From Gloeomargaritales cyanobacterium VI4D9 (GTDB taxonomy: Bacteria > Cyanobacteriota > Cyanobacteriia > Gloeomargaritales > Gloeomargaritaceae), in NCBI GenBank assembly GCA_927797885.1, contig OV696605.1, positions 372,001 to 436,000 of the forward strand: DNA of 64,000 bases, read 5' to 3'. Of the stretch, positions 45,012-53,022 are shown one piece after another. The notes under the pieces are model-generated. The model searched no databases, had not been told where the DNA came from, and was given only the letters and a program-made list of their open reading frames with translations. The translations under genes were made by a program, and so were the position numbers. Within the stretch, counting starts at the first letter, position 1, and each line of letters begins with the position of its first letter.

Positions 45012-48000
45012 TTATTCAATATTACAACGTGGATATTCACCCATTTGCCATTGAATATCTACAATAGGAACATTCGCAGTTTTCAAAACCAAGGGTTGGG
45101 TCAATCGAGTTGATTCTGAAGTTTGATTCACCGGCACATTCGCGCACAATAGGTCTTCGGGGAACAAGACTGCCTCTCCTAAATCTGATAAATCCCGCCA
45201 TTCTTGCTCATTGAAATTCAAGTTAATAAAACTGAATGTTACCGGTTCTGTCTTAAATAAATTTCCATTCACTGGGGATAGTAGTCCGACTTTGTAAAGA
45301 AAGCCATTTCCCGTGAAGAGAGCGGGTTGAGGATAGGTTGTGCCGAATTGTTGAGAACCTCCGAGAATCGGCCAGCCATTCACATTTCCCGTTGGACTTG
45401 TTGCATAGACCAGCCACTTGCCATTTGGTGCAGACAATGCGCCCGCTCCCACATTATTAATGAAATTATCTTCTGCTACCAAGGTAATGTTTCCTGAGCC
45501 AGATGAAACGCTCTTGTTCAGAACAACATTACCGGTTTTTGTCTGGATAAATACCGTTCCCGTAGCTGTAACCGCAGTAGTGGTTAACGTATCTAATGTA
45601 ATCGTGCTGGTTACCGTATCCACCGTCACCGTATCGCTATTTACCAAGCTCACATCACCCGTCACCTGAGCGGCAAAAATGTCAATATTATTATTACTGT
45701 TATTCAAAATAAAGTTATTGCTACCCTGTAATCCTAACCCCTTAGCAATAATTTGCCCATTGGCATTTTGCGTTACGCCGCCACCAGATTTTAATGTCAG
45801 GTTGCCCGTGCCCAAATTAGTTACCTTATTTAGAGTTAAGGTATTCCCTGTACGAATAATTCCATCACCGTTGCCAGTCGTAAAGCCCGTAACCGTCAGA
45901 GCAAGAGCCGTACTCGTAACCGTATCAAGTGTGAGGGCATTGACATCCTGATAGGTGACACCACCAATCACATTGGCGGCAAAGAAATTAACATCGTTAT
46001 TGGGGGCATTGAGAATGTAATTTGCACCAATACCACTCCCTTTAAGAGCTAAGCCATCAGCTAATATCTTACTCACACTATTTTGGCGAACAGTATCGTT
46101 AGAAACAATGATCACATCTTCGCCATTACTTTGAATAATTACATCATTGAGAGTAACATTTCCCCCCTGGGAAATCAGTCTAATTTCTCCAGTGGTACCA
46201 TTACCGATTAAGTTTGTACCCATTTCTGTCCGAATGGCATCGGCATTAGCACCTTTACCCATATAGATAATGTCACTTGATACACTACTTACTTCTGCAC
46301 TATCCCGTTGCCAAATACCGTAATTATCTACTCCAGTACCTTGTCCTTTACCAGTGATAGTAATCGTCCCACTATTGGTAATAATTTTTGTATTTGTATT
46401 TTCTATCTTTATACCCACATTATTATCGGTTCCATTACCCCCTATTCCCTGGTAAGTGATGCTACTCGAAGTTGTCGTTACTTGAGCTTGATTTTTTTGA
46501 AAAATTCCGTAATTTTTGAAACCTGAACCGTTGCCTTGACCAGCGATACTGATTGCCCCGGTATCACTTTTGGTTTGAGTATCTGTGCCTGTGAAATAAA
46601 CTCCGTAATTGTAATTTGTCCCATTACCGCCAGTACCTGTATAAGTGATAGTTCCGCTGGTACTAATCACTTTAGCACCCTGTTGCTGAGCGATGCCGTA
46701 ATTAAATTCAGTGCTACCCTGGCCTATCCCAGTAATCTTAATTGCCCCTGCATCGGTGCTAATTTTGGTATCCACGCCAAAGAGAAATACACCTAAATTG
46801 GTATCTGTGCCATTGCCACCGGTGCCTGTATAGGTAATATCCCCCTTGCCAGAAACGTTAGTAGTGGTAAGCACCTGAGCCTTGTTTTGTTGTAAAATTC
46901 CGTAGTTAAAATTACCACTGCCTTGACCGATACCAGTAATTTTAATTTCGCCTGTATCACTGCTAATTTTAGTGTCTTGACTTGATAAAAATACACCAAT
47001 GTTGGTACTTCCCCCATTAGCACCTGTACCCATATAAGTAATTTTGCCGCTGGTCGTTTGGACTTGGGCGGACTGAAACTGAAAAATGCCGTAATTACCA
47101 TTACCTGAACCGTTGCCAGTTCCTGTAATTGTGATTGTTCCTGTGTCACTAGTGACTTTGGTATCCGTACCTTGCAACCTTACACCATGATTACTATTGA
47201 CACCATTTCCACCCTTACCTTCATAGGTGATATTACCACTGATAGTTTTGACTTGAGCACCATTTTGTTGCCAAATTCCGTGGTTTTGAATGCTTGAGCC
47301 ATTCCCTGTACCTTTGATGCTAATTGACCCGTTGTCACTTGTAATTTTAGTGTTTACACCTTGTAATAAAATGCCATAATTATCAAGTGTCCCATTCCCC
47401 CCTGTACCTTCGTAAATAATATCGCCGCTAGTCGTTGCTACTTGAGCAGAGTTTTCTTGTAAAATTCCAAAGTTAGAATTTCCTGTACCGTTGCCAATCC
47501 CCGTGATGCTAATCGTTCCACTATCACTTTTAACCTGAGTACCTGACTTATTTAAAAATACACCAAAATTGGCATCCGTTCCCTTTCCCCCTGTGCCTTC
47601 GTAAGTAATATTGCCAGTAGTTGTTTCCACTTGAGCAGTATTGGTTTGAAAAATGCCAAAGTTGGCACTCCCCGTACCGTTGCCAATTCCTTTAATACTA
47701 ATGGCTCCACTATCACTTTTAATCTTGGTGCCCGTTTGATCCAGAAATACACCAAAGTTACTATTTGTTCCATTCCCCCCCGTGCCATCGTAAGTAATAT
47801 TGCCAGTGGTTGTTTGCACTTGAGCGGCATCATTTTGAAAAATTCCAAAGTTTGCAGTCCCTGAACCGTTGCCAATTCCTTTAATACTAATGGCTCCTGT
47901 ATTACTGATAATCTTAGTATCTGTATTTTGCAATAGTACACCATTATTATCATTGGTACCATTACCAGCTGTACCTGTGTAGGTAATATCACCACTATCA

Positions 48001-50153
48001 GTACTCACTTGAGTACCACTAAATTGGGCAATCCCATGATTAAAAGAGCCTGTGCCATTACCCGTACCTGTGAGACTAATTGCTCCCGTATTACTGGTGA
48101 TCACAGTGCCTGTATCCATCAGCAATACTCCATTGTTAAAATTGATGCCATTTCCGGCTGTGCCTTGATAGGTGATTTTGCCAGTGGTGGTACTCACTTC
48201 GGCACCTTGAAGTTGGGCAATTCCATGATTGAATGAGCCTGTACCTTGGCTCATGCCTGTGATGGAAATTTCTCCACTTTGAGTCGCTATTTTGGTATTG
48301 CTATGTTCCAATAACACACCATAATTAAAATCTTTTCCATTTCCTGATGTGCCTTGGTATGTAATTTTGCCAGTAGTAGTCGTTACCTGGGCACCACTAA
48401 GTTGATGAATGCCATAATTATTATCGTTTACACTGCCTCCTTTGCCAATAAGTTGGATATTTCCACCTTGGGTAGAAATCGTAGAATTATTAAGTTCAAT
48501 TCCTGAAAAATTACCAGCAATGTTATCAAGATTGGATTGAAAAATAACCGCATCAAAACTCCCTGAGTTCGTGCTGGTTATTTTACTCCCAGGTTGCATT
48601 ACAATTCGTCTGGCGGCTTGCACTGTAAATGTATTCGCTGTTGACCAATTCACATGGGCATCATTAGCAAAAATAATGTCACCATTCTCCAGCCCTACTG
48701 TGCCTGATGTTGTTACGGTCACATTAGTTGTACTTAAAGCTGTGTTCAGGGTAGCATTGCTTAAATTTGACCCGGTGCCAGTCGGTACAAAAGGAGTAGT
48801 TGGTGAAACATTATTATCTGCCAGGGCACTAATGGTTAAATTCAATGGGTCAAGTAACCAAGTGCCCGTTTCGCCAACTCGTCCGGTTGTATCTACTCTG
48901 GCATTATCACCAATTTCTAATATGTTTTTACCGGAGGTTTCCACAAAACCACCATTGTCTCCCCTTGCCGTAATCGTACCATCAAAACGGGTGAAATTAT
49001 CCGCCCAAACAATCACTTCCCCACCATTACCTGTGACCTTGGCATCGGCATTAATCACACTGCCGCTACTCAGAAATGTATTTTGGGCATTCAAACTAGA
49101 ATCAATTCTCTGCTTGTCCGCTCGCCCGCCTAAATAATCCCCACCTACAAAAACCAACCCGCCCGCTTTATCCCCAGAAGCATCTACTTTTGCTGACCCA
49201 AATAACCCCACATTCTCCCCGGTAATTTGAACCTTACCCCCCTTTTCACCGGATACATCCAATACACCCCGAACGGCAACCGTACCCTTGGTACCCCCCG
49301 CTAAAATGATTTCCCCATTCCGATTTTCCGCATACTTTGCTTCAATAATTCCCCCGGTGTTAATCACCTGTTCTATAATTTGTCCCGCCGCTTGAGCAGT
49401 TAAGGTAACAATCCCGCCCGGCGCAGTGATGGTGCCCTGGTTATCAATTAAAGAACTCAATTTATTGCCATAAATATCCGTAATTTGCCCTGCTAATTGG
49501 GGATCAACCGTTACACTTAATAACCCATCTCCATAGAAATCCAAACTCACAGTGGTTCCCGAAGCCAAAACCACCTTACCCAACCGGGCGGAAATCACCC
49601 CGCTATTTTGCACTGCCGGAGCCACCAAAGCCGCAAAACCCGCTTCTTTGACGGTAATCAACCCTTCGTTAATGACACGAGCAGGCGGTTTCCCTGGCAT
49701 TTGTTCAAACCGCAGAATCCCCTGCATGAAATCACTATCTTTGATATTCAAGGTACTGGCGACCAGACCCGCCACATCCACTTGAGCAGTAGGCAAAAAG
49801 GCGATGCCATTTGGGTTAATCAAAAAGATTTGCCCATTGGCGGTGAGTTTCCCAGCGATGGAAGAAGGAGTATTGCCCGTGACCCGATTAAGTGTAGCGG
49901 AGGTACTGCTAGGCTGTTGGAAATTCACCCACTCCGGCGCACTGATACTAAAACTATTCCAGTTGATAATGGCTCGGTCGGAGGACTGGTGAATGTTGAG
50001 CTTAGTGGGACTTTCTTGCTGAATCGTTGCTACCCCCTGGGTAACCACACCGCCCTGGGGGAGAGCAAGAACTGAGGGCTGGTAGAGAACCACCGCCAGC
50101 AGTAATTTGAAGGGCAAAACCAGGATGCGCCAAACACAAGGAATGAGGTACAT
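45012..50153 (-). CDS. secreted filamentous-haemagglutinin-type repeat protein (TPS-A)
   Basis: 1713 residues. A signal peptide (ILVLPFKLLLAVVLYQPSVL, cleavage after ...LA) is followed by a haemagglutinin-activity/TPS domain of ~300 residues: LPQGGVVTQGVATIQQES, SSIAGKLTANGQIFLINPNG, FLPTAQVDVAGLVAST. This domain directs two-partner secretion by an outer-membrane TpsB, not found in the window. Residues ~581-1278 are eleven tandem 63-residue repeats plus a degenerate twelfth, each itself a doublet of 31-32 residues, predicted to form a right-handed beta-helix. A second region with further TPS-like repeats and a poorly conserved C-terminus follows. A role in adhesion, aggregation or contact is an inference. 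Confidence 0.9.
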   Translation of the reverse strand: MYLIPCVWRILVLPFKLLLAVVLYQPSVLALPQGGVVTQGVATIQQESPTKLNIHQSSDRAIINWNSFSISAPEWVNFQQPSSTSATLNRVTGNTPSSIAGKLTANGQIFLINPNGIAFLPTAQVDVAGLVASTLNIKDSDFMQGILRFEQMPGKPPARVINEGLITVKEAGFAALVAPAVQNSGVISARLGKVVLASGTTVSLDFYGDGLLSVTVDPQLAGQITDIYGNKLSSLIDNQGTITAPGGIVTLTAQAAGQIIEQVINTGGIIEAKYAENRNGEIILAGGTKGTVAVRGVLDVSGEKGGKVQITGENVGLFGSAKVDASGDKAGGLVFVGGDYLGGRADKQRIDSSLNAQNTFLSSGSVINADAKVTGNGGEVIVWADNFTRFDGTITARGDNGGFVETSGKNILEIGDNARVDTTGRVGETGTWLLDPLNLTISALADNNVSPTTPFVPTGTGSNLSNATLNTALSTTNVTVTTSGTVGLENGDIIFANDAHVNWSTANTFTVQAARRIVMQPGSKITSTNSGSFDAVIFQSNLDNIAGNFSGIELNNSTISTQGGNIQLIGKGGSVNDNNYGIHQLSGAQVTTTTGKITYQGTSGNGKDFNYGVLLEHSNTKIATQSGEISITGMSQGTGSFNHGIAQLQGAEVSTTTGKITYQGTAGNGINFNNGVLLMDTGTVITSNTGAISLTGTGNGTGSFNHGIAQFSGTQVSTDSGDITYTGTAGNGTNDNNGVLLQNTDTKIISNTGAISIKGIGNGSGTANFGIFQNDAAQVQTTTGNITYDGTGGNGTNSNFGVFLDQTGTKIKSDSGAISIKGIGNGTGSANFGIFQTNTAQVETTTGNITYEGTGGKGTDANFGVFLNKSGTQVKSDSGTISITGIGNGTGNSNFGILQENSAQVATTSGDIIYEGTGGNGTLDNYGILLQGVNTKITSDNGSISIKGTGNGSSIQNHGIWQQNGAQVKTISGNITYEGKGGNGVNSNHGVRLQGTDTKVTSDTGTITITGTGNGSGNGNYGIFQFQSAQVQTTSGKITYMGTGANGGSTNIGVFLSSQDTKISSDTGEIKITGIGQGSGNFNYGILQQNKAQVLTTTNVSGKGDITYTGTGGNGTDTNLGVFLFGVDTKISTDAGAIKITGIGQGSTEFNYGIAQQQGAKVISTSGTITYTGTGGNGTNYNYGVYFTGTDTQTKSDTGAISIAGQGNGSGFKNYGIFQKNQAQVTTTSSSITYQGIGGNGTDNNVGIKIENTNTKIITNSGTITITGKGQGTGVDNYGIWQRDSAEVSSVSSDIIYMGKGANADAIRTEMGTNLIGNGTTGEIRLISQGGNVTLNDVIIQSNGEDVIIVSNDTVRQNSVSKILADGLALKGSGIGANYILNAPNNDVNFFAANVIGGVTYQDVNALTLDTVTSTALALTVTGFTTGNGDGIIRTGNTLTLNKVTNLGTGNLTLKSGGGVTQNANGQIIAKGLGLQGSNNFILNNSNNNIDIFAAQVTGDVSLVNSDTVTVDTVTSTITLDTLTTTAVTATGTVFIQTKTGNVVLNKSVSSGSGNITLVAEDNFINNVGAGALSAPNGKWLVYATSPTGNVNGWPILGGSQQFGTTYPQPALFTGNGFLYKVGLLSPVNGNLFKTEPVTFSFINLNFNEQEWRDLSDLGEAVLFPEDLLCANVPVNQTSESTRLTQPLVLKTANVPIVDIQWQMGEYPRCNIE
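46319..48413 (-). repeat. eleven 63-residue coding repeats in the haemagglutinin-like gene
   Basis: Unit boundaries fall at GIHQLSG (48413) through GIWQRDS (46319): 11 units spanning 698 codons, i.e. eleven of 63 residues, one (unit 9) with 5 extra residues (NVSGK region). Consensus half-repeats are GI-x-Q-x3-AQV-x-TT-x-G-x-ITY-x-GTGGNGT and GV-x-L-x3-TKI-x-SDTGAI-x-ITGIGNGSG. A twelfth, decayed unit follows to ~46190. Confidence 0.92.
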
Positions 50154-50663: not shown

Positions 50664-51323
50664 TTAGGGGTGATTAAATTGATGTTTTACCTGTTCCATA
50701 AACCAAGCGGTGACGGCGGCTTGATGTTCCGTGCGACTGCGTTGTAAGGCTTGTTCCAGTAAATTTAACCCTAATCCGGGCAATACTTGGGAGGTACGAA
50801 TACGGCGACTACTGCCATCCGGGCTAATGGCAAAACCAAAAATTTGCTGAATTTCCACCGCCACAATCCAATACTCGGGAATCCCCAAATCCTCATACTG
50901 CAAGCGTTTGGCACCCAGGTCATCCGCCAGGGACGTATCGCTAATTTCAATCACTAAATCGGGCAGGGGATAAGTATCTAAATCCACCACCCGTGTTCCC
51001 CAGGGAATCCGATTGGCCTTTTCCCCCACATAAACGGAAATATCCGGTTGGAATTCATGGCGCCCCGACTGCCGATAGGAACAGGCATCCTTGACCGTGG
51101 CGAATAGGTGCCTTTGCCCGACCCAAAACGTGAGCATAAATAAAAGCAGTGCATGGTCATTGGCATGGTCGGAGCCGGTGGACATGGGTTCAAAACGGCA
51201 GTGTCCCTGGTAATAATACCCCTTGAGTTTGCTATTTTTGGGGTCATCGGCAATTTGCACAAATTCATCCCAATTGGCTTTTTGCCAGGTATTTAAGGGG
51301 AATTGGGTCAAACTCAAGGTCAT
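50664..51323 (-). CDS. Uma2-family putative restriction-like endonuclease (DUF820)
   Basis: 219 residues with the Uma2/PD-(D/E)xK-like core: QPDISVYVGEKANRIPWG, then DLVIEISDTSLADDLGAKRL and QYEDLGIPEYWIVAVEIQ. These proteins are greatly expanded in cyanobacteria, commonly in repeat-rich regions; the biochemical function of most is unknown. The catalytic-type residues (Asp, Glu in VIEIS, Lys in GAKRLQYEDLG) are present. A partial duplicate of its 5' end lies immediately downstream. Start ATG 51323. Confidence 0.82.
   Translation of the reverse strand: MTLSLTQFPLNTWQKANWDEFVQIADDPKNSKLKGYYYQGHCRFEPMSTGSDHANDHALLLFMLTFWVGQRHLFATVKDACSYRQSGRHEFQPDISVYVGEKANRIPWGTRVVDLDTYPLPDLVIEISDTSLADDLGAKRLQYEDLGIPEYWIVAVEIQQIFGFAISPDGSSRRIRTSQVLPGLGLNLLEQALQRSRTEHQAAVTAWFMEQVKHQFNHP
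51150..51323 (-). repeat. direct repeat B (5' end of Uma2 gene, first copy)
   Basis: Partner of 50488-50658. The match covers the first ~61 codons of the Uma2 gene, differing at codon 8 and a few silent positions. Confidence 0.85.
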
Positions 51324-51779: not shown

Positions 51780-53022
51780 GGGCACCTCTATTTATTCAAA
51801 ATATGAGAACGAAACACAAAAACAGCATAGCATTGCTCAGTACTTTTTTGTACTAAGATGACTGGGTTTTATAGATTGCTGTAGATATGATTGAAAAGAG
51901 ACTTAGTAGGGGGTCAAAACTCACAGATTATCGGCCAGGGACTGCCGCTCCCAAAACGCATAACGGCGGAAATTATAAGCCAGATTTTTCAACCCAATTG
52001 CCGCTTCTACTCTGGTTTTACCAATCAGACGCATGAACTTACCCCCAAGACACATCACCCACTGACCAAATACGTGTTCCACCTTGGCTCTCACTTTAGA
52101 TTTGATGCGATTCTTTTCATTTTGCTCTGCGGTTAGGGGCTGATTTCGGTAGCCTTTTTCATGGATGTGACTGGTAAATCCAATCCTGGCTAACGTCCAT
52201 TCTAAATCCGTGCTGTGATAGGCACTATCTCCCCAGATTTCCGACCCATCAATATCCACCAGTTGACTGAATACTTGTGAGTCATGCACGGAGGCATCCG
52301 TGACCACATAATGACGCACAAAACCATATTTTACATCCACACTGATATGATTTTTATAGCCAAAATAGCTGACACCATTTTTCTTTACCCAACGGGCATC
52401 TCTATCCTTTTGCCGTAAAACCTGGAGTTTTTCCTCCCATTGCTTAGGAATTTTCCCTTCCTTTACTTCTTGATTTTCTTGCCGAGTATTTCGTTGGACT
52501 GGCACGGGAATGAGAGTGGCATCCACAATCTGACCAACTTCGACAATATATCCTTTTTCTCTCAGGTAATTATCAAAGTGAGCAAATACTTCTTTGACTA
52601 GATCGTGCTTGGCGAGATTATCCCGAAATAGCCAGACCGTTTTGGCATCAGGGATAGCGTCTTCGATACCCAATCCTAGGAATTCCATGAACGAGATACG
52701 GTCATTCACTTGAAACTCGAGTTCATCGTCACTAAGGGCATACATTTGTTGGAGAATCAACAATTTAAACATCACAATGACGTCGGTGGGTTTTCGACCC
52801 GCATTACTCTTTCTTTCCTTGTCATATATGGTTTCTAATATGGGTCGGAAATCTTCCCAGTTAATATTTTCATTGAGCCACTTCAGCATGGGCTTTTTCT
52901 GATTGAGTTTTTCCCGCCGCTCTTGCTCATCCCAAAATCCTTTTTGACCCATTTTCCCTCTCCACGTCGTTAATACTAATTATCTCACAAATCCCTCCCA
53001 AAATCAATTAATAGAGGTGCCC
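51780..53022 (-). mobile_element. IS5-family insertion sequence, complete (1243 bp)
   Basis: Bounded by terminal inverted repeats GGGCACCTCTATT...AATAGAGGTGCCC and flanked by the 4-bp direct repeat TTAA (51776-51779 and 53023-53026). This fits the YTAR target of the IS5 subgroup. It carries one transposase gene and sits inside the second unit of a 166-bp tandem repeat, so it arrived after the repeat was duplicated. Confidence 0.93.
51921..52952 (-). CDS. IS5-family DDE transposase
   Basis: 343 residues, apparently intact. The N-terminal part has the family segments for target recognition (NAGRKPTDVIVMFKLLILQQ, then DRISFMEFLGLGIEDAIPDA). Catalytic acids are in GQIVDATLIPVPVQR, IWGDSAYHSTDLEW and RAKVEHVFGQWVM, and ISVDVKYGFVRHYVVTDASV lies between the first two. 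It would also be the candidate transposase for the 144-bp element at 51445. Confidence 0.93.
   Translation of the reverse strand: MGQKGFWDEQERREKLNQKKPMLKWLNENINWEDFRPILETIYDKERKSNAGRKPTDVIVMFKLLILQQMYALSDDELEFQVNDRISFMEFLGLGIEDAIPDAKTVWLFRDNLAKHDLVKEVFAHFDNYLREKGYIVEVGQIVDATLIPVPVQRNTRQENQEVKEGKIPKQWEEKLQVLRQKDRDARWVKKNGVSYFGYKNHISVDVKYGFVRHYVVTDASVHDSQVFSQLVDIDGSEIWGDSAYHSTDLEWTLARIGFTSHIHEKGYRNQPLTAEQNEKNRIKSKVRAKVEHVFGQWVMCLGGKFMRLIGKTRVEAAIGLKNLAYNFRRYAFWERQSLADNL

What the first reader, a model, noticed from the sequence alone, without database searches (positions are those of the whole stretch)
45012..50153. 1713-aa secreted repeat protein with eleven exact-length 63-residue doublet repeats
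Eleven units measure 63 residues each (one has +5), each a doublet of ~31-32 residues alternating GIxQ..AQV..TT and GVxL..TKI..SDTG. This suggests a regular beta-helix grown by unit duplication, so length could vary between strains and change surface behaviour.
Basis: partly seen in the sequence, partly recalled or inferred. Interest (0 to 1): 0.6.

Follow-up and report, generated by a model that had tools for sequence, protein, structure and literature searches.

The report
Cyanobacterial two-partner-secreted beta-helix adhesin
This gene makes a large surface protein, a stiff three-sided rod exported by a dedicated outer-membrane pore, and its eleven 63-residue repeats are each two turns of that rod; it is a solid new example of a well-known kind of bacterial adhesin, with a tail that probably locks it to the cell.

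Summary
On the minus strand, 45012-50153 encodes a 1713-aa protein with eleven tandem units, ten of exactly 63 residues and one of 68, each a 32+31-residue doublet. It is a TpsA exoprotein of two-partner (type Vb) secretion: signal sequence, TPS domain, NPNG motif. AlphaFold2 gives a beta-helix with three strands per coil; each 31/32-residue half is one coil. The closest solved structures are EtpA, HxuA and HMW1. The genome has four TpsB genes; a distinct TpsB class (2.99 Mb) tracks this TpsA class across the genus and is the probable partner. The mature protein has only two cysteines, both within 44 residues of the C-terminus and conserved in relatives, as in the HMW1/HxuA disulfide anchor, so it is probably retained on the cell. 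Units are old (53-76% DNA identity), so nothing suggests ongoing slippage; relatives carry fewer such units beside other passengers. Paralogues share nearly the same secretion module and Cys tail but different passengers (one has 19 DUF5649 repeats). The six other genomes of the genus lack the gene at this locus. New member of a known kind.

The parts
45012..50153 (-). tpsA gene, class II, 1713 aa
   Evidence: ORF and translation; TPS domain 4.7e-33
50064..50153 (-). signal sequence, residues about 1-30 (cleavage VLA/LPQGG is inference)
   Evidence: read from sequence; the paralogue L021 has the same region
49251..50063 (-). TPS secretion domain, residues 31-301
   Evidence: PF05860 31-301; TIGR01901; 86-92% identical in class-II relatives
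49806..49817 (-). NPNG motif, residues 113-116
   Evidence: sequence and invariant columns N83-G86 of alignment A1
48366..48500 (-). degenerate partial unit, residues 552-596
   Evidence: unit profile, 23.5 bits
46272..48365 (-). eleven tandem 63-aa doublets (unit 8 is 68 aa), residues 597-1294
   Evidence: the part up to residue 975 modelled as beta-helix
45393..46271 (-). C-terminal part of the beta-helix, residues 1295-1587
   Evidence: AlphaFold2 model of residues 1290-1713, mostly pLDDT 70-94 here; conserved LVYATSP..NGFLYK block
45015..45392 (-). low-confidence tail, residues 1588-1713, with Cys1670 and Cys1710, the proposed pore anchor
   Evidence: pLDDT under 50; Cys pair conserved in relatives

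Best explanation
A TpsA exoprotein (type Vb secretion) of a cyanobacterium. It crosses the inner membrane by its signal sequence, its TPS domain docks on a TpsB pore (most likely the orphan 567-aa TpsB at genome position about 2.991 Mb), and it folds outside into a right-handed, three-sided beta-helix. The eleven doublets add about 22 coils, roughly 10-11 nm of rod at 4.8 A per coil (inference). The last about 45 residues form a disulfide loop that jams in the pore, so the rod stays attached to the cell and acts as an adhesin or cell-cell/biofilm contact protein. Shown by computation: TPS domain, predicted fold, repeat structure, Cys pair, TpsB genes. Inferred: partner choice, disulfide, retention, adhesive function.
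For: TPS domain; PDB sequence hits only EtpA, HMW1, HxuA; three strands per 31/32 residues at pLDDT 90-98; Foldseek hits under 1e-3 are only EtpA, HxuA, HMW1. Four TpsB genes. The TpsB-II class occurs in own, G004, G005, G006; genomes G001-G003 lack it and have no intact class-II TpsA; in G005 both lie on one 6.8-kb contig. Two Cys only in the mature chain, 40-44 apart near the end, in all seven class-II proteins with a complete C-terminus; HMW1/HxuA anchor described in PMC5422565.
Against: The gene is not next to any TpsB. G006 has TpsB-II without a found class-II TpsA, and the pattern over seven genomes is too small to be significant. The G005 contig is a draft assembly. TPS residues about 79-239 were modelled poorly. 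The cysteine tail has no confident structure. No binding or retention data.
Confidence: 0.65

Rival explanations
1. Same TpsA beta-helix, but released into the medium or matrix (like EtpA or FHA) rather than pore-anchored.
For: EtpA, the closest solved protein, is a secreted adhesin (PMC11463764, PMC10284417).
Against: The conserved C-terminal Cys pair in an otherwise Cys-free mature chain has no obvious use in a released rod.
Confidence: 0.2
2. A TpsA that captures a nutrient or ligand at the cell surface (as HxuA does for haem-hemopexin) rather than an adhesin.
For: HxuA is also a structural match and shares the anchored design (PMC5422565).
Against: The repeats are modelled as a smooth solenoid; no insert that would form a receptor was seen, but residues 976-1289 were not modelled.
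Confidence: 0.08
3. A contact-dependent inhibition (CdiA-type) toxin carrier.
For: TPS domain; the best solved relative of its likely TpsB is a CdiB.
Against: No toxin domain in Pfam or NCBIfam; C-terminus conserved rather than variable; the neighbouring gene is miaA, not an immunity gene.
Confidence: 0.02
4. A gene that is no longer secreted because its TpsB partner has been lost.
For: No TpsB beside it; other TPS genes of this genome are split or interrupted by an IS.
Against: Four TpsB genes are present, the reading frame is intact over 1713 codons and the repeat units show codon-position constraint.
Confidence: 0.05

Closest known systems
EtpA (E. coli TpsA adhesin, PDB 8vba/8vbb/8cpk)
   Same: TPS domain and long three-sided beta-helix; best sequence and fold match
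   Different: EtpA repeats are 228 aa with nine strands per side, about 25 aa per coil, against 31-32 here; EtpA is glycosylated by EtpC, whereas no HMW1C N-domain was found here (that search had no positive control) and sequons are at chance
HMW1 and HxuA (Haemophilus influenzae TpsA)
   Same: TPS domain and fold; C-terminal Cys pair like their pore anchor
   Different: Different passengers; partner TpsB is unlinked here; disulfide and anchoring not shown
Class-I (CHAT-like) TpsA proteins of the same genome
   Same: TPS domain; one of them (IS-split, L026) carries the same 63-aa unit at 80-90 bits
   Different: TPS domains about 25-28% identical and in a separate clade; CHAT-like C-terminal end by eye instead of the Cys tail; different TpsB class nearby
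Class-II paralogues of the same genome (2104 and 2937 aa) and of G004
   Same: 87-92% identical TPS domain and the same Cys-pair tail
   Different: Different passengers: 19 DUF5649 repeats in the 2937-aa protein, mostly other repeats in the 2104-aa protein

Membership tests
Two-partner secretion exoproteins (TpsA) | N-terminal TPS domain with NPNG motif behind a signal sequence | tested here: met
   PF05860 4.7e-33, TIGR01901 7.7e-23, NPNG at 113-116
Two-partner secretion exoproteins (TpsA) | Right-handed beta-helix of three strands per coil | tested here: met
   Predicted model and Foldseek hits; prediction only, handedness by homology
Two-partner secretion exoproteins (TpsA) | Cognate TpsB (ShlB barrel with POTRA) in the genome | tested here: inconclusive
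   Four TpsB genes, two without a neighbouring tpsA; cognate pair inferred from co-occurrence
HMW1/HxuA-type anchored TpsA | C-terminal disulfide that holds the protein in the TpsB pore | tested here: inconclusive
   Cys pair conserved; bond and retention not testable here
HMW1C/EtpC-glycosylated adhesins | HMW1C-like N-glycosyltransferase and sequon-rich passenger | tested here: not met
   20 sequons against 18.1 +/- 3.5 in shuffles; no PF18071 in 39 genomes, but no control rang either; the two GT41 proteins lack that domain, and one has TPRs
CDI toxins (CdiA) | C-terminal toxin domain and immunity gene | tested here: not met
   No toxin domain; conserved C-terminus; the neighbouring gene is miaA

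The most novel reading that the evidence does not exclude
The genus keeps a set of TpsA genes with a nearly fixed secretion module and Cys-anchor tail but exchangeable middle passengers (63-aa doublets, DUF5649 repeats, others), kept uniform at the ends by recombination within each genome and all served by one unlinked TpsB: a cassette-like surface-diversification system.
Probability: 0.3. Interest if true: 0.5.

Novelty: new member of a known kind. Interest (0 to 1): 0.3.

Why it matters
It describes an HMW/EtpA-type, apparently anchored TpsA system in a cyanobacterium, gives a very regular two-coil repeat of the TpsA beta-helix, and offers a natural set of paralogues for asking whether one TpsB can serve several TpsAs. 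None of this overturns known biology.

Tried and rejected
Glycosylated-adhesin idea: sequons at chance, no HMW1C N-domain found. Recent or ongoing repeat expansion: units at most 76% DNA-identical, third positions 35-61% identical between neighbours. CDI toxin: no toxin domain or immunity gene. The first genome-contig scan with the whole protein found nothing; the second found only Azohydromonas lata with a 42% TPS domain, so no tool named the organism. RNA families: none in the window. Promoter and terminator scan: no more than in shuffles. Foldseek hits of the C-terminal model (best: a Ca-dependent antifreeze beta-helix, E 0.77) are not significant.

Full report
OBSERVATION. The ORF is on the minus strand (45012-50153) and encodes 1713 aa. 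Residues 597-1294 consist of eleven tandem units, ten of exactly 63 aa and the eighth of 68. Each is a 32-aa half (about ITYxGTGGNGTxxNxGVxLxxTxTKIxSDTGx) followed by a 31-aa half (about ISIxGxGNGxGxxNxGIxQxxxAQVxTTSGx). Identity at lag 63 is 52%; 1000 shuffles never exceed 15%; lag 31/32 gives 20%, so the duplicated module is the doublet. The units are 45-71% identical in protein and 53-76% in DNA; the closest are neighbours 3-4-5 and, in protein, 8-9. First and second codon positions are 72% identical on average and third positions 43%, with 30% expected by chance: old duplications under constraint.

WHAT IT IS. Pfam finds only the TPS domain (4.7e-33). Sequence searches of the PDB return EtpA, HMW1 and HxuA only. 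AlphaFold2, on an alignment of this protein with six pieces of relatives, models residues 31-975: three strands recur every 31/32 residues through the repeats, mostly at pLDDT 90-98, so one half-unit is one coil and one doublet is two coils. Residues about 79-239 of the TPS domain were modelled poorly, despite clear homology. Foldseek's hits under 1e-3 are EtpA (9.4e-20), HxuA and HMW1; their TM-scores are low (0.15-0.35), as expected for long bent rods with a poorly modelled end. EtpA's 228-aa repeats have nine strands per side (PMC11463764), about 25 aa per coil, so the coils here are wider.

THE C-TERMINUS. Residues 1290-1587 are modelled as beta-helix and the last about 125 at low confidence. 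The mature protein has two cysteines only, C1670 and C1710. In all seven class-II proteins with a complete C-terminus that were compared this way (three in this genome, three in G004, one in G005) the two Cys are 40-44 residues apart near the end, with no other Cys in the mature part available (the third G004 protein is split by a frame break into 1777+580 aa and the G005 one is cut by its contig end). A further G005 fragment (L079) has extra Cys and a differing end. In HMW1 and HxuA such a disulfide loop locks the C-terminus in the TpsB pore (PMC5422565). I infer the same here.

PARTNER. The genome has nine TPS-domain genes and four ShlB-type genes. TPS domains fall into two strongly separated clades (100/100). 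The window's class II groups with two more genes of this genome, with G004 and G005, with G021 and with the betaproteobacterium Azohydromonas lata (long branch, so its position is unsure); class I holds the other cyanobacterial ones. The TpsBs also fall into two groups at about 27% identity. The class at 2.991 Mb is found in own, G004, G005 and G006. G001, G002 and G003 lack it and lack an intact class-II TpsA; G003 keeps what looks like a decayed C-terminal remnant. In G005, TpsB-II and a class-II TpsA share a 6.8-kb contig. Class-I TpsBs lie beside class-I TpsAs (L023, L024, L087). The pairing is therefore likely, but seven genomes do not make it significant, and G006 is an exception (its TpsB lies near a contig end).

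REPEAT NUMBER AND PASSENGERS. With a unit profile at 25 bits, other proteins carry one to seven matching units per open frame, of which at most four or five in a run score well. The 2937-aa paralogue has two units, then 19 DUF5649 repeats. The 2104-aa paralogue has mostly other repeats. The 1713- and 2937-aa paralogues are 77-92% identical in DNA per 40-codon block over the first 440 codons, with similarity reaching about 80 bp upstream of the start; then identity drops to 68% and below. TPS modules of one genome are more alike at third positions (0.64-0.66 own; 0.72-0.83 G004) than between genomes (0.49-0.60). This fits recombination between paralogues or lineage-specific duplication; I ran no formal test. 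Beside gyrB-miaA the gene is absent in the six other genomes of the genus examined; in the closest, G003 (94.5% DNA identity), homology stops at the end of miaA.

ORGANISM. A cyanobacterium, by my reading of neighbouring genes (e.g. an IsiA/Pcb-like protein beside a TpsB locus in G004).

VERDICT. A well-supported new TpsA, probably surface-anchored, in a paralogue family with differing passengers. Ordinary in kind, tidy in detail.

Noticed in passing
L026:5745-15060 (own genome about 1.650-1.659 Mb): A class-I TpsA gene with the same 63-aa units is interrupted by an IS-like ORF (330 aa) that also occurs beside several other loci of this genome.
   Followed up: partly
L021:6024-14837: A 2937-aa paralogue has a 92%-identical TPS domain but 19 DUF5649 repeats (PF18886, 4.9e-239) as passenger.
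   Followed up: partly
L031:5633-12712 (G004): A class-II TpsA gene is split into two reading frames (1777 and 580 aa).
   Followed up: no
L104:5735-6520 (G003): A 261-aa ORF holds a probable decayed class-II TpsA C-terminus in a genome that also lacks TpsB-II.
   Followed up: partly
L091:6391-11478 and L092:5507-10669 (family f26): Class-I TPS proteins of another cyanobacterial family also end in a Cys pair, with 25-26-residue spacing: perhaps an anchor gained independently.
   Followed up: no
window 50664-51323 and 51921-52952: A Uma2-family gene and a DDE transposase lie just upstream of the tpsA gene.
   Followed up: no
L032:1441-3462 and L033:1444-3480 (own genome about 2.83 and 2.08 Mb): Two GT41-family glycosyltransferases without the HMW1C N-terminal domain, one with TPRs; targets unknown.
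   Followed up: partly
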